NCBI RefSeq assembly: GCF_026015965.1
Contig: NZ_CP110383.1
Coordinates: forward strand, 2,172,051-2,236,050
DNA from: Selenomonas sputigena
Lineage (GTDB): Bacteria; Bacillota; Negativicutes; Selenomonadales; Selenomonadaceae
DNA length: 64,000 nt
Direction of reading: 5' to 3'
The first letter of the stretch is position 1. Each line of letters opens with the position of its first letter. Position numbers and translations under genes: made by a program. The notes under the pieces are model-generated. The model saw nothing but the letters and a program-made list of their open reading frames with translations, had not been told where the DNA came from and did not search any database. Positions 22,839 through 55,645 of the stretch are shown here, one piece after another.

Positions 22839-23123
22839 TAGGGAAACGCTGATAAAATGAAGTTGCCCAGATTTACACAGATGCGCTGTATCTATAGCGG
22901 TCAACGTCAGCCAATCATGCGGCGCACTTCGCGCTTGCATTCTTGGGACGTTTTCGCATACGAGCCGTTGCCCAATCGCCTGCGTCCTTCGGACTTGGCT
23001 CTTGGACGGCTCAGCAAGGAGACAAACCACAGGCGTAGCGGTGCTACGTCGAGGATTTATCGACGACGAGAGGACAGCGCAGATGTGTGAAGATGGGTGG
23101 CTGAATTTATCAGTGATTCCTTA
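22839..23123. mobile_element. MITE copy 1, with a nested repeat unit
   Basis: A 285-bp non-coding element with inverted ends: TAGGGAAACGCTGATAAA on the left and the complement of TAAGGAATCACTGATAAA on the right. It matches the 165-bp element at 52670-52834 except for an extra block of about 119 bp at 22896-23014. It has no transposase of its own, so it is called a miniature inverted-repeat element. Confidence 0.8.
22896..23014 (-). repeat. 118-bp repeat unit inserted inside the MITE
   Basis: This block is absent from the MITE at 52670. It is the reverse complement of the unit tandemly repeated at 35315-35900, closest to the diverged fifth copy there. Its exact fit into the MITE shows that the unit itself can move or be copied. 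Confidence 0.75.
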
Positions 23124-25137: not shown

Positions 25138-26106
25138 TCAGCGTATCTTTTGCAGGAAGAGGCGCATACCGTCGGTGACGTAACGGTAAATCCACTCACT
25201 GCCGGCATGATATTCTCCACTGCTGTCCGGCGTATAAACATCTGTATGCACGCCGCCCCCAACGCTCTTGACCTCCAGTCTGCCGCCTCCGATGAACCGG
25301 CGGTACGCATACGGCTTATCCGCCCCGTTCTCGGAATCCGAATACATGGTAAATATCCCCGTCGCCGTATCGTAGCTGAACGCGACCCATTCCGAGCTGT
25401 CGTTCGCATCGATGACCATGTAGCGCGCGGGAACGGCGGGGCTTGCCTGCGGCGCGCTTGCCTGCTTTTTCGTCTTGCGCACGACGAATGAGATATACTC
25501 GCCATTGGCATCACCGCCGAGTACGTACGTTTCTCCTTCGTCGAGGAGGTCCTTCATGCTATTGAACATCCTTATTACATTCAAGATATACTCAGGCAGG
25601 GTCCTTTCCCCGATACCCGGGATATAGGCAACATGGGCGCTGCGGTCTTCCTGCCACTCATAGATCGCGTCATAGGCGCTGTTCTCGGGGATGAGCTGCT
25701 CTACCCGCACATCGCCCGGCTCCCACCCCTTCCATGATAAAATTGTCCACCGCTCGATGGGGCCCCCATCGTCGTAGAGGGTGAGCACGCCTGTTTTCTC
25801 GTCGTAGTCAAACGACCGGTTCCATCGGCCTGCCTCCTGCGTCGGGTCGACGATTTCATAGGTGCCCTGTTCGGGCTCGGGCGTCACGAGCACAGTCCCG
25901 TCGCTGCTGCCGCCGTTCGGTTTCGCATAGCGCTTGAGGATATAGGTGCTCTGATTATCCCATCGGTCTAGGCTCGTAAAGCGCGTCTCCCCGATATCCC
26001 CGTTGTAGAGCGCGGCGGAGGCAGGCTCCACCTGAGCCAGCAGGAATAGGGCGGCAAACAGCAGCGCCGCCGTGCAGGTCTTCATCATCGCGATTGGATG
26101 TCTCAT
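25138..26106 (-). CDS. Secreted protein with two YxIVD/FDYD modules, fourth gene of operon
   Basis: This 322-residue protein has a signal peptide (about 1-32, ending ASAA). After ALYNGDIGETRF and TYILKRYA come two copies of an unnamed module. Each has a start like TYEIVD or YMVIDAND, a middle W..(S/A)FDYD or W.AFSYD, and a strand like LTLYDD or FTMYSD. It ends YRYVTDGMRLFLQKIR. The protein at 53690-54682 has the same plan and nearly the same ends. I do not know the function; secretion and repeated beta-rich modules suggest a surface or extracellular role. The ATG follows AAGGAG; the previous gene ends 17 bp upstream. Confidence 0.75.
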   Translation of the reverse strand: MRHPIAMMKTCTAALLFAALFLLAQVEPASAALYNGDIGETRFTSLDRWDNQSTYILKRYAKPNGGSSDGTVLVTPEPEQGTYEIVDPTQEAGRWNRSFDYDEKTGVLTLYDDGGPIERWTILSWKGWEPGDVRVEQLIPENSAYDAIYEWQEDRSAHVAYIPGIGERTLPEYILNVIRMFNSMKDLLDEGETYVLGGDANGEYISFVVRKTKKQASAPQASPAVPARYMVIDANDSSEWVAFSYDTATGIFTMYSDSENGADKPYAYRRFIGGGRLEVKSVGGGVHTDVYTPDSSGEYHAGSEWIYRYVTDGMRLFLQKIR

Positions 26107-26123: not shown

Positions 26124-26609
26124 TCACTTTGCTTTCTGAATGGTAAAGGTATGCGATTTCCCATCCGGCATATCGGCGGTGACGCTGATATCCTCCATGC
26201 TGTAGTTGCCGAGCCCGTTGATAGGGCCGTGAAACTGGATCAACGCCTGTATGATATATGCAGGCAATGTTTTCGGGCCTTTTCCTTCATAAAGGACTGG
26301 TATTTCATAGACCCCGCTGTAGGATTTGTTCTCCGGACGCAGCTCCTCCACGGTCACGCGGTTGTTCCAATAGTCGCTGAAATCCAGCCGCCGCACTGCG
26401 CCCTTATCGTCATACAGCGTAATTATCTGCGTGGACGTGTCGTAATCAAATGACCGATTCCATTCGGACGGCGACACCTCGTCCACGATGTTGTAGGCGC
26501 CGTGTTTCGGCGCGGCGGAGGCGACGCCTCCCTGCGCGAGCAGCAGCGTGCCGACGAGCAGGAATGCCGCCATGTAGACCTTAAAAATGTTCCTTGTTTG
26601 ATTCCTCAT
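26124..26609 (-). CDS. Secreted single-module protein, third gene of operon
   Basis: This 161-residue protein has a signal peptide (about 1-33, ending ASAAP) and one copy of the module seen twice in its neighbour: AYNIVDEVSPSEWNRSFDYD then IITLYDDKGAVRRLDF. VTVEELRPENKSY and TLPAYIIQALIQF follow, matching VRVEQLIPENSAY and TLPEYILNVIRMF next door. It is a one-module member of the family. The start follows AAGGAG in nearly the same leader as the next gene, a sign of tandem duplication. Function unknown. Confidence 0.75.
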   Translation of the reverse strand: MRNQTRNIFKVYMAAFLLVGTLLLAQGGVASAAPKHGAYNIVDEVSPSEWNRSFDYDTSTQIITLYDDKGAVRRLDFSDYWNNRVTVEELRPENKSYSGVYEIPVLYEGKGPKTLPAYIIQALIQFHGPINGLGNYSMEDISVTADMPDGKSHTFTIQKAK

Positions 26610-26614
26610 TTCAT

Positions 26615-27058
26615 TCAGCTCCTTATCCGTCGTGTCAGCTTATCCAAGATACACCGCCATCCATCTGCCCATATGAGATAGTCCAGCAGTGCTATCACTA
26701 TTCCTATGGAAAAAGACACAAGGTGTTCGTCTATTTCTTGTTCTTCTATATTAAGTACGAACTTAGCGACAACTCTAACTATGAGTAGCGCCATGATACC
26801 TGTTATCAACAGGCTCGGCCGTGTCTTTCCATCTATACAAGCAAACCGTACGCAAAACATTGTCGCAAGTGGCGGCATAGCATGTATAGCAAACCATAAA
26901 CCGAGCTCCGTTTGCCAAATCAACATAGCAACACAAAAAACACCGATAAGTGTCCAAATCACTGAAAGCTTTATGCGTTCTGCTTTAGGGCGTTTTGGCA
27001 GGCGCCATATCCATATAAAAACACCTACATAAATCAGTATCTCTATAGACCACCACAT
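26615..27058 (-). CDS. Small polytopic membrane protein, second gene of operon
   Basis: This 147-residue protein has about four membrane helices and starts MWWSIEILIYVGVFIWIW. It can be aligned with the 148-residue protein at 53189-53635: both have a Trp-rich first helix, a short basic/acidic loop (PKRPKAERIK versus PKEEHPKF), and a last helix with SIG...(L/V)...IW. Both sit immediately before a secreted YxIVD-module gene. The function is unknown; a partner or transport role for the secreted proteins is a guess. The ribosome binding site is weak (GAGAGC). Confidence 0.65.
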   Translation of the reverse strand: MWWSIEILIYVGVFIWIWRLPKRPKAERIKLSVIWTLIGVFCVAMLIWQTELGLWFAIHAMPPLATMFCVRFACIDGKTRPSLLITGIMALLIVRVVAKFVLNIEEQEIDEHLVSFSIGIVIALLDYLIWADGWRCILDKLTRRIRS

Positions 27059-27097: not shown

Positions 27098-27685
27098 TCA
27101 CCGCAGCGTCCCCTCGTCTACCATCGGAGGAACTTTATTCCCCTTGTCAAGCGCATAGAGCACGTTCAGCACGTAGGCGGCGCTCCCGACATAGGCGATG
27201 CTGTTGTACTTGCGCACGCCGAACTTCTTGACGAGGGTGCGCGCCGTTTCATTCGGTCCCGTCTTGAAACAAACGCCCGTCTTGCTCGCCTGTTCCACGG
27301 GAACGAGGTGCGCATCGTCAAAGTCAAAATCATAGACGCCCTTCTCGTTCTTCTCGATAAACATACCGCGCCATGCGCCCGTGACATTACTGTGCGCGAA
27401 TCCGTAGACGCCCTGCATCACCGAACTCTTGCCGCCGCGCGGGTAGATCTCCAGCTCGGCAGGCACATAATAAGAGGTGACGAGTCCCTCGCGAATAACC
27501 TGTCTCTCCTCCTGGTGAATGATGACGTTGTAGTGGATGTCGACATCGCCGCCCTCCCCCGCAACCGTATACTGTGCGACCACGACGGGGAACCCCTTCG
27601 CCGACGCGAGGCCCGCATTCGCCCCGAGCGCGACGCACAAGACGGCGCAGAGTGCAATCGCAAAACTCCATACATGCTTTCTCAT
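27098..27685 (-). CDS. Secreted protein of unknown function, first gene of operon
   Basis: This 195-residue protein has a signal peptide (about 1-29, ending LASAKG) and a beta-rich body (VVAQYTVAGEGGDVDIHYNVIIH and similar). It does not obviously carry the YxIVD module of the later genes. The ATG at 27685 follows AAGGAGG. A tract of nine G's on this strand lies about 50 bp before the start, within a region homologous to the leader of the second locus at 53070-53135. I do not recognise the family. Confidence 0.7.
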   Translation of the reverse strand: MRKHVWSFAIALCAVLCVALGANAGLASAKGFPVVVAQYTVAGEGGDVDIHYNVIIHQEERQVIREGLVTSYYVPAELEIYPRGGKSSVMQGVYGFAHSNVTGAWRGMFIEKNEKGVYDFDFDDAHLVPVEQASKTGVCFKTGPNETARTLVKKFGVRKYNSIAYVGSAAYVLNVLYALDKGNKVPPMVDEGTLR

Positions 27686-27720
27686 AGAAATCCTCCTTGA
27701 ACAAAACCCAATATACTTTA

Positions 27721-27790
27721 GATATGGATATTATTCCCCCCCCCGCGGATTTTCCTGCTAATTCTAAAAATATTTTTCAAAATGATATAA
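27721..27790 (-). promoter_or_regulatory. Leader region with G9 tract, homologous to 53070-53135
   Basis: On the minus strand AAAAATATTTTT is followed by GCAGGAAAATCC, nine G's (27736-27744) and TATCCATA. The same order appears before the second secreted-module locus with ten G's. Homopolymer tracts of this kind vary in length during replication, so expression may switch on and off. Confidence 0.6.
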
Positions 27791-27805
27791 AACTCCGCAC
27801 AAAAA

Positions 27806-27836
27806 AGCCGCACACGTAAAACGCATGCGGCGGCTC
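27806..27836 (-). terminator. Hairpin with T run on the minus strand
   Basis: AGCCGC pairs with GCGGCT, and six T's follow on the minus strand. No gene on that strand lies upstream, so it looks like an orphan or insulating terminator between divergent promoters. Confidence 0.5.
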
Positions 27837-27938
27837 TATCCTAAGGAAATGGAAAACTGCATAGGCAGACATGACGTATAGGTTGCATCCTATGGTATAA
27901 TAGAGGAAAAATCATTGAACTGCGACAAAGGAGGCGCC

Positions 27939-30809: not shown

Positions 30810-31001
30810 ATCGATCTCTCCTGTTCCAAATCTGAATGCGTTTCTCATTGCTGTCATTATAACAAATACAGATTGCGCTTGTCGTCATATTTGTTACGGG
30901 TTTTGGAGCAGCATTTGTTTAGTTCGGTATTGACAATGCCTGTGATGCATGATATTCTTTGGCGGAAGGATTGTTATGAAGAAATAAAATTTCTATATTT
31001 G

Positions 31002-31149
31002 GGTCAGGTGTCGCAAGACTTAATAGGGAAGTCGGTTGAAGCCGGCGCGGTCACGCCACTGTAACAGGGAGCACGCTGCAAAATGCCACTGAGGAAACTT
31101 GGGAAGGTGCAGCCGTGCGATGAACTGGAGCCAGGAGAACTGCCTGATC
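31002..31149 (+). ncRNA. Cobalamin (B12) riboswitch aptamer
   Basis: The conserved parts are present in order: P1 arm GTCAGG, TAATAGGGAA, GCCACTGT, GGGAAGG, the B12-box-like GAGCCAGGAGAACTGCC and the closing CCTGA. It precedes a TonB-dependent receptor and a terminator at 31262-31309. B12 binding should therefore stop transcription of the receptor when the vitamin is plentiful. Confidence 0.93.
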
Positions 31150-31261
31150 AACAATCACCGTTTGAACCTGCGAGCGATGGGGAGGAGATTTTGGCGGCAG
31201 CAAGCCCATGCCTTTTGCTAGGCCGAGGCACAGCGTACAGCCATTGACGGAAGTTTTCGCG

Positions 31262-31309
31262 CAGCCCCTCCTTTTTCGCGCACGAAAGGAGGGGTTGTGT
31301 TTTATTTTT
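31262..31309 (+). terminator. Riboswitch-linked intrinsic terminator
   Basis: Stem CCCCTCCTTT with AAAGGAGGGG and a long T-rich run, about 110 nt after the aptamer and 50 nt before the receptor gene. This layout indicates control by transcription termination. Confidence 0.85.
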
Positions 31310-31357
31310 GGAGATTGTGCGTGTAGTTTACTAGATGAGGAAAGGGAGTTCTGCAAA

Positions 31358-33595
31358 ATGAATCCATGGAAAAAGAAATGCCTGACGCTTGCCGTCATCT
31401 GTTCCGTTGCGGGAACAACCCAAGTGTATGCGGCGGAAAAAAGTGCTGAGACGACGAACACAGCAGTTGATTCGACGACGGTGTCCACGGAAACTTCGTC
31501 CGCGGGGGGGGGACATGACCTCGGAGAGACGACCGTCACGGCGACGAGAGTCGCGGAACCTGTCAACAAAGTTCCCGCCAACGTCACCGTCATCACGGCG
31601 AAAGAACTTGAAAAGAGGCATGTCTTCAGTTTGCGCGAAGCGCTTGCGAGGGAGGCAGGCATCTATGTTGCGCCGACGGCAGAAGTGAAGGATGGCTTGG
31701 AGCTGCGTGGATTTAGCAGTCCGAACATCCTTGTCATGTACAATGGACAGCAGCTCAACACGGCCTTTGACGGCGGCGTCAATTGGGATTCCATCCCGCT
31801 CAGTGACATCGAGCGCATCGAGATCGTGCGCGGAGCCAGTTCCTCGCTCTACGGCGGTCATGCTGTCGCCGGTGTCATCAACATCATTACGAAGAAACCG
31901 AAAAAGCCGGAGAATCCAGAGCAGCAGCTCCTTCATGGCAAAATTGAAGTCTCTCACGGCAGCAACAACACATGGCAGCGCGGCATGCAGGTCACGGGCG
32001 GCGACGGTAAGCTCGACTTCCGTCTCGGTTACGAAAAACGTACATCGGATGGCTGGGTCGGGCACTATGCCACGACGGAAGAGTGGTATAATGCAGGTGT
32101 TACTCCGGATGCGACGGGCGTATTTCCGAAGCTTTCTGATGGCGAATATATCGTAGGCAGCCGTGGTGCAAGAAAAAGATCAAGTGAAAATGTCTTCTTT
32201 GATATGAATTACGACTTTGATGCCAGCCGTTCGCTCAGCTACACCTATATGCACAATTCTTATAAGTATTCTTACCATGACCCCATCACTTATTTGCGTG
32301 ATGCGAGCGGAAATCCTACATTTTCCGGGACGGTACTCTTGCCGAACGGTAATTATATCAGCGCCTCGCCAGGGGATTTTCTCGGCTATATGGGAAAGCG
32401 CGAGCAAGACGTCCACAAATTGCGCTATGAGGATAAGAAAAACTCTTTCACGGCGAACATCGGCTATAGCGACACCACGAAGGATGGTTATTCCGGTGCC
32501 TCGTGGCGCGCTACAAGCATCGATTGGACGGGATTGGGAAACCGAGCGGAATATCCTACGAAGAACTACAATATAGAAGCGCAAAAGAAATGGACGATTA
32601 AGAATCATACGCTGCTTGCAGGCTTTGCATGGATGAAAGACAAGATGCGCTATCGTGCCGTTGATCTTCATCGTTGGAAGGATTGGAGTTCAGAATATGG
32701 CGATCCATACGCACAGAGCGGTGGATCCATCATCTCCACAGCTCTTTTCGTGCAGGATGAGTTAGAGCTTGATCCGCGTTGGCGGCTGCAGGTCGGTCTG
32801 CGTTATGACCGCTTCGATAAGAAGGATGGCTATTCCTACATCGATGATGTACGCAAAGATTATGAAGACACGGCCTTCAATGCCTGGAGTCCAAAATTCG
32901 CTGTGACCTATGAGCCGCAAAAGGACACGATGATTTATGCCAGCTTTGGCAAATCATTCAATCCGCCGTCGATTTATCGTCTTTATCGCCGTGCGGGAGA
33001 CGACCCGCGTTCCATCAAGGCCAATCCTGATCTGACGCCGGAAAAATCTACGACGTACGAACTGGGAATGAAACAGAAGATAAACAAGAACACCTCATAT
33101 GGTTTGACGTTCTTCCGCGTGGATACGAAGGATAAGATTGCCATCGCTACGCGCAACGGTATCAGAGCCTATTACAACATGAATGAAGCGATGATCAAGG
33201 GGATAGAGTTCGACGTCAAGCATCGTCTGAGCCGCGATTGGCGGGTATATCTGAACTACACCTTTGAATCAGGCGAATATACGAGCGGCGGCGATACGTA
33301 CCGAGATTGGGATTTGCCGAAGCACATGGCAGGCTTCGGTATCGACTATACGCGCGGGAAGTTCGGCGGTGTCCTTGATGCAAGGTATGTGGCCGCAAGG
33401 CAGGATGTTGATACAACTACTGGTGAATACGGCTCAGAGGACAGTTTCTTCACTACGAATCTCTACTTGACGTATAAGTTCGACGACAGCTTCAGAATGC
33501 AGTTCGGCATCGATAACCTCTTCAATCGGCACTTCTACGCGAATGAAGCAGCGAGCGATAGAACCTACTCTCTCGGTGCGACGTATTCCTTCTAG
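31358..33595 (+). CDS. TonB-dependent outer-membrane receptor, probably for cobalamin (BtuB-like)
   Basis: This 745-residue protein has a signal peptide (about 1-25, ending VYAA), a TonB-box-like ETTVTATR, a plug domain (about 75-180; GSSSLYGGHAVAGVINIITKK) and a 22-strand-type barrel ending ATYSF with terminal Phe. It imports a large ligand with energy from TonB. The B12 riboswitch upstream points to cobalamin or a related corrinoid. The long upstream extension is in the riboswitch leader and is not coding; the ATG at 31358 follows GGGAG. Presence of this class supports a diderm cell. Confidence 0.9.
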   Translation: MNPWKKKCLTLAVICSVAGTTQVYAAEKSAETTNTAVDSTTVSTETSSAGGGHDLGETTVTATRVAEPVNKVPANVTVITAKELEKRHVFSLREALAREAGIYVAPTAEVKDGLELRGFSSPNILVMYNGQQLNTAFDGGVNWDSIPLSDIERIEIVRGASSSLYGGHAVAGVINIITKKPKKPENPEQQLLHGKIEVSHGSNNTWQRGMQVTGGDGKLDFRLGYEKRTSDGWVGHYATTEEWYNAGVTPDATGVFPKLSDGEYIVGSRGARKRSSENVFFDMNYDFDASRSLSYTYMHNSYKYSYHDPITYLRDASGNPTFSGTVLLPNGNYISASPGDFLGYMGKREQDVHKLRYEDKKNSFTANIGYSDTTKDGYSGASWRATSIDWTGLGNRAEYPTKNYNIEAQKKWTIKNHTLLAGFAWMKDKMRYRAVDLHRWKDWSSEYGDPYAQSGGSIISTALFVQDELELDPRWRLQVGLRYDRFDKKDGYSYIDDVRKDYEDTAFNAWSPKFAVTYEPQKDTMIYASFGKSFNPPSIYRLYRRAGDDPRSIKANPDLTPEKSTTYELGMKQKINKNTSYGLTFFRVDTKDKIAIATRNGIRAYYNMNEAMIKGIEFDVKHRLSRDWRVYLNYTFESGEYTSGGDTYRDWDLPKHMAGFGIDYTRGKFGGVLDARYVAARQDVDTTTGEYGSEDSFFTTNLYLTYKFDDSFRMQFGIDNLFNRHFYANEAASDRTYSLGATYSF

Positions 33596-52669: not shown

Positions 52670-52834
52670 TAGGAAACGCTGATAAAATGAAGTCGCCCAG
52701 ATTTGCGCAGATGCGCTGTATCTATCGAGGAGACAAACCGGAGGCGTAGCGGTGCTACGTCGAGGATTTGTCGACGACGAGAGGACAGCGCAGATGCGTG
52801 AAGATGGGTGGCTGAATTTATCAGTGATTCCCTA
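52670..52834. mobile_element. MITE copy 2 (165 bp)
   Basis: Inverted ends TAGGAAACGCTGATAAA and the complement of TAGGGAATCACTGATAAA, with a TA at each edge. The body equals the copy at 22839-23123 without the nested 118-bp unit. It cuts into a transposase gene remnant on its right. Confidence 0.85.
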
Positions 52835-52925: not shown

Positions 52926-52976
52926 TTTGACCTCTCCTTCTCCTCTTTGACTTTATCAAAAATCCTTGCGAAGAAG

Positions 52977-53002
52977 TTGTCAACTTTATTTATACAACAT
53001 CA
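52977..53002 (+). repeat. 26-bp inverted repeat, left copy
   Basis: The perfect reverse complement of 55357-55382. It lies just upstream of the IS OrfA remnant, so it may be the tip of that IS. The pair brackets the second secreted-module locus. Confidence 0.85.
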
Positions 53003-53069
53003 ATGTGTGGCGGCGTATCCTTCCACGCAATCCGGGCGCGCATCTGTACAGGATACAAAATTGTGTCGA

Positions 53070-53135
53070 TTTAAAAAAATATTTTTCGTATAGGCAGGAG
53101 AATCCACGGGGGGGGGGAGAACTATATCCATAGTC
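53070..53135 (+). promoter_or_regulatory. Leader region with G10 tract, homologous to 27721-27790
   Basis: AAAAATATTTTT, then GGCAGGAGAATCC, ten G's (53108-53117) and TATCCATA, the same order as before the operon at 25138-27685. The tract is about 70 bp before the first start codon. Length change of the G run could alter promoter or leader function. Confidence 0.6.
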
Positions 53136-53188
53136 CAAGGACTTTCCGTGTATGAAAAGACGTGCAGATGAAAGGAGGCGGGGCGTCG

Positions 53189-53635
53189 ATGGATATCGGT
53201 GTGATGTTCCAAATTTCTATACCGGTGTTTGCGTTTGTCTATCTATGGCAATTTACCTTGAACCATGCGCCGAAAGAGGAGCATCCTAAATTCCTTGCCC
53301 TTTTGGTGGCGATGTTCGGTCTTTATGGTTGTATGGCCGCGTTTGTGTACGGCTTGCCGGAAACGGCCAGCGCGTCCGCATGGGCGAAATTTGCGATGTG
53401 GGGCGCGAAGATTGCGGTGAAGATGCTGTTGGCGCTCATGACCCTGTATGTTGTCCGGCTTGCGCGCGCGGGCAGACTGCCGGAGAAGGGGATGGCGACC
53501 GTAGGCATCGGAGGCCTGCTGCTCGCGTCGCTGTTGTTCGCCTGCTCCTACGCATATGCGGCCGACGTCCTTGCGGCGCTCAGTATCGGGGTGCTGGCGG
53601 GGGCTGTGAACGTGTGGATTTGGGGGAGAAGATAA
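53189..53635 (+). CDS. Small polytopic membrane protein, first gene of second secreted-module locus
   Basis: This 148-residue protein has four to five membrane helices (MDIGVMFQISIPVFAFVYLW onward). Distant likeness to the 147-residue protein at 26615-27058 is seen in the first loop (APKEEHPKF) and the last helix (LSIGVLAGAVNVWIW). Both precede a secreted module gene. The ATG at 53189 is 10-11 nt from AGGAGG, a little far; a GTG nine codons earlier precedes that site. Function unknown. Confidence 0.65.
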   Translation: MDIGVMFQISIPVFAFVYLWQFTLNHAPKEEHPKFLALLVAMFGLYGCMAAFVYGLPETASASAWAKFAMWGAKIAVKMLLALMTLYVVRLARAGRLPEKGMATVGIGGLLLASLLFACSYAYAADVLAALSIGVLAGAVNVWIWGRR

Positions 53636-53685
53636 TGTCGACCTCCGAAGATGATGATCAGGAGATGAAGGAACATGAGGAGTGA
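53635..53685 (+). CDS. Possible 16-residue acidic peptide between coupled genes
   Basis: The ATG at 53635 overlaps the previous stop (TAATG). The ORF encodes MSTSEDDDQEMKEHEE and ends inside the ribosome binding site of the next gene. It may be a coupling peptide that keeps ribosomes moving to the secreted protein. It is too short for firm support. Confidence 0.3.
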   Translation: MSTSEDDDQEMKEHEE

Positions 53686-53689
53686 AACA

Positions 53690-54682
53690 ATGAAACTTTT
53701 GAAAACATGGATGACGGCGCTCTGCCTTGCCTTCGCCGTCCTACTCATGCAGGGCGGAACGGCGCTTGCCGCGCTCTATCAGGGAGACATCGGCGAGACG
53801 CGGTTCACGACGCCCGAGGGCACCTACATATTAAAACGCTATGCGCCGCCGCAGGGCGGCGCGTACGGCGCATCGTCTTCCAGCGGGAGCAGCGGCGGCG
53901 GGCTGACCGTCGTTCCGCCTACGCCGCAGCAGGGGCGATATGAGATCGTGGACGAGGCGCAGTCGGGATGGGACGTCACATTTGATTTCGACCATTCCAG
54001 AACCTTTACGATCTACAATGAGGCGGGTCCGACGCAGCGGATTCAGTACCGTCCGGGCGGCGCCAGCGTCTATGTAACGAACCTGGTCGACAAGGACAGC
54101 ATCTTCGACGGCGAATATGAAAGACAGGAATCGGGCGACTTCATCGCCTATATCCCGGGCGTCGGAGAGCGCAAGCTGCCGCCGTACATCATGGCGGGGC
54201 TGCGGATTGTCCTCGATAACAGTGTGGCGGGACTGGAGCAGGGGATTACATATCCCTATACCTCGCAGGTGCCGAACGTCGGGACGATGTGGAACTTCAC
54301 CCTGCGCAAAACGCAGCCGCGGCAGCTGACCGAGATAGAGACGACGCCGAGCGCGGCGCCGCAGACGAATACGGCAAGTCCGCCGAAGAGTGCGCTCTAC
54401 ATGATTGTCAATGCGAATGACAGAGAGGATTGGACGGCGTTCACCTATGACACGAATACGCGCGTATTTACCATGTACGACGCTGAGTTCTATGGCATAG
54501 GAAAACCGTATTCAGAGCGCCGGTTCCTCTCCGATGGCAGGCTCGAGGTCAAGAGCCTTGGCGCAGGTGCGCATACGGACATCTACACACGGACTGCCGG
54601 CGGGACATACGAGACGTCCAGCGAGAGGATTTACCGCTACGTCACCGACGGCATGAGGCTCTTCCTGCAAAAGGTACGCTGA
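53690..54682 (+). CDS. Secreted protein with two YxIVD/FDYD modules (second locus)
   Basis: This 330-residue protein has a signal peptide (about 1-27, ending LAALY), then GDIGETRF and TYILKRYA as in the protein at 25138-26106. A Ser/Gly linker and two modules follow: YEIVDEAQSGWDVTFDFD, then YMIVNANDREDWTAFTYD. The last 60 residues (RRF..GRLEVKS.G.G.HTDIYT, RIYRYVTDGMRLFLQKVR) are almost the same as in the paralogue. The ATG at 53690 follows GAGGAG; an ATG five codons earlier overlaps that site. Function unknown; an extracellular or surface role is inferred. Confidence 0.75.
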   Translation: MKLLKTWMTALCLAFAVLLMQGGTALAALYQGDIGETRFTTPEGTYILKRYAPPQGGAYGASSSSGSSGGGLTVVPPTPQQGRYEIVDEAQSGWDVTFDFDHSRTFTIYNEAGPTQRIQYRPGGASVYVTNLVDKDSIFDGEYERQESGDFIAYIPGVGERKLPPYIMAGLRIVLDNSVAGLEQGITYPYTSQVPNVGTMWNFTLRKTQPRQLTEIETTPSAAPQTNTASPPKSALYMIVNANDREDWTAFTYDTNTRVFTMYDAEFYGIGKPYSERRFLSDGRLEVKSLGAGAHTDIYTRTAGGTYETSSERIYRYVTDGMRLFLQKVR

Positions 54683-55356: not shown

Positions 55357-55382
55357 TGATGTTGTATAAATAAAGTTGACAA
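55357..55382 (-). repeat. 26-bp inverted repeat, right copy
   Basis: A perfect inverted match to 52977-53002. Outside the match both sides keep weak likeness (GAAGAAG), while inside it they differ at once, as expected for the tips of two related insertion elements facing away from the cassette. Confidence 0.85.
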
Positions 55383-55645
55383 GATCTTCTTCGGTCTTTA
55401 TACTAGAACCAAAGAGGTCAAAGAACCTTTTACCCTCCAGGGGCAATTGAAGCCCGGCGGACTGGTAAAAGGTCTTGGCCTTTCTTTTCTTCTTCTTTTT
55501 GCAGTTTGAACTTGACAAGATCTTCTTCGGTCTTTATACTGCAGTTGATGAGGTTGCCTTTTTTAGCTGCTAGGGGAAATTGGATCCCGGCAGGAGCTAG
55601 AAATTCGGCAACCTTTTTCATGTCTGCATAAATCAAATTTTCCAT
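55377..55645 (-). pseudogene. Frameshifted gene with two copies of a short AGxQxPL...SIKTEEDLV module
   Basis: The minus strand reads MENLIYADMKKVAEFL then AGIQFPLAAKK and SIKTEEDLVKF. After a Lys-rich run and a frame change it reads AGLQLPLEGK and SIKTEEDLVNF. The two modules are separated by 137 bp and share a 29-bp identical DNA block. The frame change lies in an A/G-rich stretch (about 55480-55505), so replication slippage is likely. No ribosome binding site is seen. The family is not recognised; it lies beside polyvalent-type genes. Confidence 0.5.

What the first reader, a model, noticed from the sequence alone, without database searches (positions are those of the whole stretch)
53070..54682. 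Second unlinked locus with the same leader, membrane partner and module protein
The leader (AT palindrome, GCAGGA.AATCC, G10, TATCCATA), the order of membrane protein then secreted protein, and the ends of the secreted proteins all match the locus at 25-27.7 kb. Conservation of non-coding leader plus gene pair in two places suggests a real functional system with on/off control.
Basis: seen in the sequence. Interest (0 to 1): 0.8.

Follow-up and report, generated by a model that had tools for sequence, protein, structure and literature searches.

The report
Shared promoter leader with G-tract spacer
Two sets of genes for membrane and secreted proteins in a Selenomonas-family bacterium sit behind the same short DNA leader, which recurs in about three dozen related genomes and looks like a promoter whose spacing is set by a run of G's, so that a slip of a G or two could turn the genes up or down.

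Summary
Leaders at 53073-53132 (+, G10) and 27724-27785 (-, G9) are the only exact copies in the 2.61 Mb genome. Module proteins are 45% identical, membrane partners only 22%. Locus A has one more secreted-protein gene first.

A profile finds 46 copies in 36 of 189 family genomes; a pattern scan of 84,980 species genomes hit only Selenomonas and Centipeda records. Plan: AT box, GCAGGANAATCC, G-run, GAAT-ATAT. 25 of 33 copies read are intergenic and 38-139 nt before a reading frame (5% of random places); many of the genes encode envelope or secreted proteins of unrelated families. G-runs span 3 to 12, yet AGGA-to-GAA spacing is 15-17 nt in 29 of 33; the three copies with runs of 10 or more, B among them, depart. 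That is promoter-spacer behaviour.

AGGA/GAAT matches sigma-H and SigH is encoded, but SigH spacing is 17-18 while A has 16 and B 19. I call it a SigH-like promoter with a G-run spacer. Slippage-driven switching is likely but unproven: no reads or second strain were available. It works like porA-type phase variation.

The parts
53073..53132 (+). Leader B: AT box, GCAGGAGAATCCAC, G10 (53108-53117), GAAC-TATATCCATA; AGGA (53096-53099) to GAAC (53119-53122) spacer 19 nt
53189..53635 (+). Membrane protein of locus B (148 aa from ATG 53189 after AGGAGG; open frame from GTG 53162), 5 hydrophobic segments
   Evidence: the start is my reading of the sequence
53675..54682 (+). Secreted module protein P0002, 335 aa, signal-peptide-like N-terminus, repeated beta-rich FDYD...FTMY module
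27724..27785 (-). Leader A: AT box, GCAGGAAAATCCGC, G9 (27736-27744), GAAT-AATATCCATA; AGGA (27753-27756) to GAAT spacer 16 nt
27098..27685 (-). First gene of locus A, 195-aa secreted protein P0006 (40% identical to the first gene of the S. massiliensis operon)
26615..27058 (-). Membrane protein of locus A (P0005, 147 aa), distant relative of the B membrane protein
26124..26609 (-). Secreted 161-aa protein P0004, single module
25138..26106 (-). Secreted module protein P0003, 322 aa
52976..53001 (-). IS-like element end left of locus B, inverted relative to the one at 55358 (IS3 type is recalled from the frame beside its copy in L095)
55358..55383 (+). IS-like end right of locus B; the two are the only copies in the genome at up to 2 mismatches

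Best explanation
The leader is a conserved promoter module of this family. AGGA acts as the -35 and GAAT as the -10 element of a SigH-like promoter, with an AT-rich upstream box as a likely UP-type element; the G-run fills the spacer. The spacing is held at 15-17 nt in most copies. Slipped-strand loss or gain of one or two G's changes the spacer (A is 16 and B is 19 in this isolate, either side of the 17-18 preferred by sigma-H promoters), so transcription of the gene set behind it should go up or down in a heritable, reversible way. Shown: conservation, position, spacing constraint, length variation between species, presence of SigH. Inferred: promoter activity, sigma identity, slippage within a strain, switching.
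For: 46 leader hits in 36 of 189 family genomes. In 33 copies read, AGG-to-GAA distance is 20 in 17, 21 in 8 and 19 in 4, although the longest G-run ranges from 3 to 12. All three copies with a pure run of 10 or more fall outside that range, 29 of the other 30 inside (Fisher p=7e-4). 30 of 33 have an open frame of 60 aa or more starting 38-139 nt after AGG, 26 of 33 are not covered by a frame of 100 aa or more, 25 of 33 meet both; random places in the same loci: 22%, 13%, 5% of 6,600. Loci with the same genes behind differ in tract: G188 GGAGGGGGG versus G186 G10; locus A G9+AATAAT versus S. massiliensis G8+AAAAATAAT. SigH is encoded (369 bits, cut-off 294.8). Sporomusa, same class, has 322 SigH start sites with AGGA and GAAT at 17-18 nt (PMC12456013, passages). 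In the own genome AGGANWW...GAAT sites with AT-rich spacers peak at 17-18 (13 of the 17 with AT of at least 0.7, among the 100 forward-strand sites listed of 209), one upstream of a gene that I read as dnaG.
Against: G-run copies are spaced shorter than sigma-H promoters: 15-16 in 10 of 12 exact GCAGGANAATCC...GAAT sites, while 59 sites of that pattern without a G-run peak at 17-18 (32 of 59; their context was not checked). B has GAAC, not GAAT. Conservation of TCC and of the G-run goes beyond what a sigma-H promoter needs. 14 of 33 copies hold G7, which need not be hypermutable. The wider set was found by a model trained on 11 whole leaders, and GAA was located by searching for it, so the spacing count is partly circular; in the 11 copies chosen by the left half alone, 8 are in range, one of them with AAAC in place of GAAT. 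7 of 33 leaders lie inside some open frame of 100 aa or more. No within-strain variation was seen.
Confidence: 0.5

Rival explanations
1. A regulon promoter with a fixed, non-switching G-run: the run is a structural or protein-binding part (rigid spacer, or part of a site overlapping GGA-NNN-TCC) and the length differences between species are ordinary drift.
For: G7 in 14 of 33 copies across seven genera (for the count, for the genomes); GCAGG, TCC and the run are nearly invariant; spacing kept in 29 of 33.
Against: Copies in the window's genome and in genus g9 (Centipeda and relatives) carry pure runs of 8-12 and differ between apparently orthologous loci; runs of this length are slippage-prone in other bacteria (recalled).
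Confidence: 0.3
2. A housekeeping (sigma-A) promoter with a dedicated activator at GGAAAATCC: GGAAAA-17-TATATA, not sigma-H.
For: In G7-AGAAT-TATATA copies the distance from GGAAAA to TATATA is 17 nt (my count); GGA/TCC is a small dyad; conservation goes beyond sigma-H needs.
Against: No TTGACA-like -35; TATATA is not kept at that place in the AATAATAT copies including A, while GAA followed by T, C or G is found in 30 of 33 copies (a search for it, so partly circular).
Confidence: 0.3
3. The leader is carried by a mobile element or repeat and its conservation is transposition, not function.
For: Locus B lies between inverted IS-like ends; MITE-like elements sit beside the leader in S. massiliensis and near B; a 56-bp leader island joins different genes in S. 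massiliensis and C. periodontii; the G087 and G078 copies carry a long inverted repeat.
Against: 1-3 copies per genome; no inverted repeat of 10 or more bases around leaders A and B; the IS-like ends lie outside leader B and are absent at A; constant spacing, orientation and distance to a start codon; the same gene family (PF12869) follows the leader in 5 genomes of 3 genera.
Confidence: 0.1

Closest known systems
porA / fetA / opc promoter phase variation in Neisseria meningitidis
   Same: A homopolymer lies between the -10 and -35 elements of promoters for surface proteins and is thought to alter sigma-factor binding (PMC2791445, passage).
   Different: There the promoters belong to single genes; here one 60-bp leader of constant design recurs before many unrelated genes across a bacterial family, with SigH-like elements, and switching is untested.
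SigH promoters of Negativicutes (Sporomusa sphaeroides)
   Same: AGGA and GAAT elements; SigH gene present.
   Different: Spacer 16 (A) or 19 (B) against 17-18; the G-run spacer, the invariant TCC and the AT box are extra.
nadA repeat-tract promoter of N. meningitidis
   Same: Repeat length changes the spacing of promoter parts of a surface adhesin gene (PMC2791445, start of abstract and passages).
   Different: That tract lies upstream of the promoter and works with a repressor; here it is inside the inferred promoter.

Membership tests
SigH (Spo0H) promoter | -35 AGGA element | tested here: met
   AGGA in both window leaders; among 32 non-duplicate copies, aligned on AGG, A follows in 28
SigH (Spo0H) promoter | -10 GAAT element | tested here: inconclusive
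   GAAT in A, GAAC in B; fourth base T in 25 of the 31 copies anchored there
SigH (Spo0H) promoter | 17-18 nt between the elements | tested here: not met
   A 16, B 19; 15-16 in 10 of 12 exact G-run sites; 17-18 in Sporomusa
SigH (Spo0H) promoter | SigH encoded in the genome | tested here: met
   TIGR02859, 369.3 bits against cut-off 294.8
SigH (Spo0H) promoter | SigH-dependent transcription | not testable with these tools
   no expression data
Homopolymer promoter-spacer phase variation (porA type) | pure homopolymer between the two promoter elements | tested here: inconclusive
   G10/G9 between AGGA and GAA(C/T), but the promoter elements are inferred
Homopolymer promoter-spacer phase variation (porA type) | tract length varies within a strain or species | not testable with these tools
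   one genome per species held; differences seen only between species
Homopolymer promoter-spacer phase variation (porA type) | expression follows tract length | not testable with these tools
   no reporter or RNA data
Homopolymer promoter-spacer phase variation (porA type) | controls surface or secreted products | tested here: inconclusive
   signal-peptide-like and membrane proteins at A and B, lipoproteins, autotransporters and an exporter elsewhere; location is predicted from sequence, and some genes behind leaders look cytosolic or are unassigned
Mobile repeat / MITE | terminal inverted repeats bounding the leader | tested here: not met
   no inverted repeat of 10 or more bases in window 27650-27870 or 53005-53200; a long one only in the G087 and G078 copies among the four folded
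Mobile repeat / MITE | many copies per genome | tested here: not met
   2 in own genome, 1-3 elsewhere

The most novel reading that the evidence does not exclude
The family keeps a set of SigH-like promoters whose spacer is a G-run held about one base short of the SigH optimum, so that envelope genes respond to SigH only in cells whose tract has slipped: bet-hedging gated by a stationary-phase sigma factor, on a portable 60-bp leader behind which surface genes are exchanged.
Probability: 0.25. Interest if true: 0.82.

Novelty: new variant of a known kind. Interest (0 to 1): 0.6.

Why it matters
It names a concrete candidate switch for surface variation in Selenomonas and its relatives, for which the rows that I saw of five paper searches showed no work on phase variation. 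Because the leader marks its targets, one can list a candidate phase-variable repertoire from genomes alone. If the sigma-H link holds, it would join a growth-phase sigma factor to random switching, a combination that I do not know from the literature (recalled).

Tried and rejected
Viral contigs gave no hit for the leader pattern and no relative of the B module protein. Pfam and NCBIfam gave no family above cut-off for the A and B locus proteins; DUF1686 for the B membrane protein is below its cut-off. PDB sequence searches gave only E above 0.1. A structure model of P0002 from 6 rows is weak (mean pLDDT 63.7; most of the C-terminal module 80-93), and fold searches gave only beta-sheet look-alikes such as OspA (Foldseek E 0.0046 at best, best Z 5.2); I draw no function from them. 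Folding of leaders A and B as single-stranded DNA is no better than shuffles. Genome-wide G-run depletion, which I first assumed, was wrong: 3 tracts of 9 or more observed against 4.5 expected. A DnaA-box-like TTATNCACA (0-1 mismatch) follows the leader in 8 of 33 copies (shuffles mean 0.9, largest 6); one pair of these is a duplicate and neither window leader has one; left open. The AGGANWW...GAAT excess in the own genome (209 against 45 for the reversed pattern) is not used as proof, since ribosome-binding sites and codon use also favour AGGA. In the own genome all 100 listed sites together show no sharp spacing peak (14:7, 15:18, 16:11, 17:19, 18:27, 19:18); only the AT-rich subset does.

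Full report
OBSERVATION. Both leaders are in the sequence as described, apart from G9 instead of G10 at locus A. The exact motif AGGANAATCCNCGGGGG has two sites in the 2,613,980-base genome, both here; the next best have two mismatches. Three G-runs of nine or more exist in the genome, all within this window: the two leaders and one inside a TonB-receptor frame. The genome-wide number is ordinary (4.5 expected from the window's composition), the clustering is not (0.11 expected in 64 kb).

GENES. Locus B is leader, membrane protein, module protein. Locus A is leader, 195-aa secreted protein, membrane protein, 161-aa secreted protein, 322-aa module protein. P0002 and P0003 are 45% identical, the membrane proteins 22%. 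The module proteins match no Pfam or NCBIfam family above cut-off; a two-row profile finds relatives in 16 of 189 family genomes. At DNA level A and B share 64 bp at the leader, a 43-bp stretch early in the module gene and about 290 bp at its 3' end, so the leader is conserved as an island.

SPREAD. The tools give the family no name; I call it Selenomonadaceae from the record titles. A scan of 84,980 species genomes for GCAGGANAATCCNCGGGGGGG gave 6 stretches, all titled Selenomonas or Centipeda; the scan may leave out the window's own genome. Viral contigs gave none. AGGANAATCCRCGGGG has 10 exact sites in 8 of 189 family genomes (the 0-mismatch rows). A sequence-only model built on 11 leaders gave 46 hits in 36 of 189 genomes, 1-3 per genome. 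I read 35 of the 46 and aligned 33. Behind them lie tRNA_anti-like proteins in five genomes of three genera (PF12869), an AIDA-type adhesin and an autotransporter domain, an HlyD-type exporter (a second, near-identical copy by reading), genes that I read as a dynamin-like pair but that Pfam does not name, and many small unassigned proteins.

POSITION. 30 of 33 copies have an open frame of 60 aa or more starting 38-139 nt after AGG, 26 of 33 are not covered by a frame of 100 aa or more, and 25 meet both, against 22%, 13% and 5% of 6,600 random places in the same loci. Seven copies lie inside some longer frame on one strand.

SPACING. In 33 aligned copies the AT box (A's then T's, about 11 to 20 bases before AGG), GCAGG and GAA are the fixed points. 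The longest G-run varies from 3 to 12 (7 in 14 copies, 9 in 8), but AGG-to-GAA stays at 19-21 in 29 of 33; B and G089 are at 23, G186 at 22, and the S. massiliensis operon copy lacks GAAT. Copies keep the distance even when the run is broken (GGGGGAGG) or CAC is lost to G's. Constant distance with variable filling is what a two-part promoter requires. These counts are partly circular, since the model saw whole leaders and GAA was searched for. So I also searched 189 genomes for GCAGGANAATCC, 6-16 bases of anything, GAAT: of 71 sites 12 hold a G-run of five or more, and 10 of these have AGGA-to-GAAT 15-16; the 59 others peak at 17 (22) and 18 (10) (Fisher p=1e-5 for 15-16). The context of those 59 was not checked.

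SIGMA FACTOR. AGGA and GAAT are the sigma-H elements; a start-site map of Sporomusa, of the same class, gives 322 such promoters with 17-18 nt spacers (PMC12456013, passages read). The own genome encodes SigH. Of 209 AGGANWW...GAAT sites, 100 were listed; all together they show no sharp peak, but the 17 with the most AT-rich spacers lie at 17-18 in 13 cases, one before a gene that I read as dnaG; in B. subtilis the dnaG-sigA operon has a sigma-H promoter (recalled). The leaders miss this spacing (A 16, B 19), and B reads GAAC. I therefore do not file them as SigH promoters but describe them as SigH-like. One reading is that the default is off-optimum and a slip corrects it; another is that a different factor prefers 16.

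MOSAIC LOCI. Locus A and its S. massiliensis counterpart share leader plus signal peptide at 89% over 196 bp and the last two genes at 92% over 1,770 bp, while the first two genes between show only an 83-bp stretch at 70% (first genes 40% identical as proteins). S. massiliensis contig 9 and C. periodontii share the leader (95% over 56 bp) and a downstream flank (96% over 1,377 bp) but carry a module gene in one and a membrane gene in the other. G087 and G078 have the leader divergent from a PTS-transporter gene (my reading), with different genes behind. So genes behind the leader are exchanged or lost while it stays.

MOBILITY. Locus B lies between two inverted 25-base IS-like ends, the only copies in the genome at up to 2 mismatches, and near a MITE-like element. 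In S. massiliensis a similar element sits between the leader and a 59-bp stretch that adjoins it at locus A. No inverted repeat of 10 or more bases surrounds leader A or B. These elements explain movement of neighbourhoods, not the leader's internal constancy.

VERDICT. A conserved promoter-like leader with a G-run spacer is well supported; sigma identity and switching are inferred. The mechanism class is known from Neisseria (PMC2791445, passage). Its family-wide, SigH-like form before exchangeable envelope genes did not appear in the rows that I saw of five paper searches (searches show 20 of 292 and 10 of 113 papers).

Noticed in passing
window 31504-31512: The third G9 run of the genome lies inside a TonB-dependent receptor frame (31208-33595 +), just before a TonB-box-like stretch (my reading), downstream of a cobalamin riboswitch (30989-31161): a candidate frameshift-type phase-variable receptor.
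   Followed up: partly
window 52672-52831 and 22842-23120: Two MITE-like elements with GGAATCRCTGATAAA inverted ends; relatives of the first sit beside the leader in S. massiliensis (L094).
   Followed up: partly
window 52976-53001 and 55358-55383: Inverted 25-base IS-like ends enclose locus B; only two copies in the genome.
   Followed up: yes
L097:4300-4390 and L098:4070-4156: Leaders divergent from a PTS gene carry a long inverted repeat GCGGATTTTCCTG...CAGGAAAATCCGC (DNA fold z -7.5 and -5.9) and different genes behind.
   Followed up: partly
L095:6393-6952: The module gene behind the G12 leader of G089 looks frameshifted compared with the relative in L092.
   Followed up: no
leaders in L136, L138, L145, L146, L148, L151, L154, L155: DnaA-box-like TTATNCACA (0-1 mismatch) in the 50 nt after the leader in 8 of 33 copies; meaning unknown.
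   Followed up: partly
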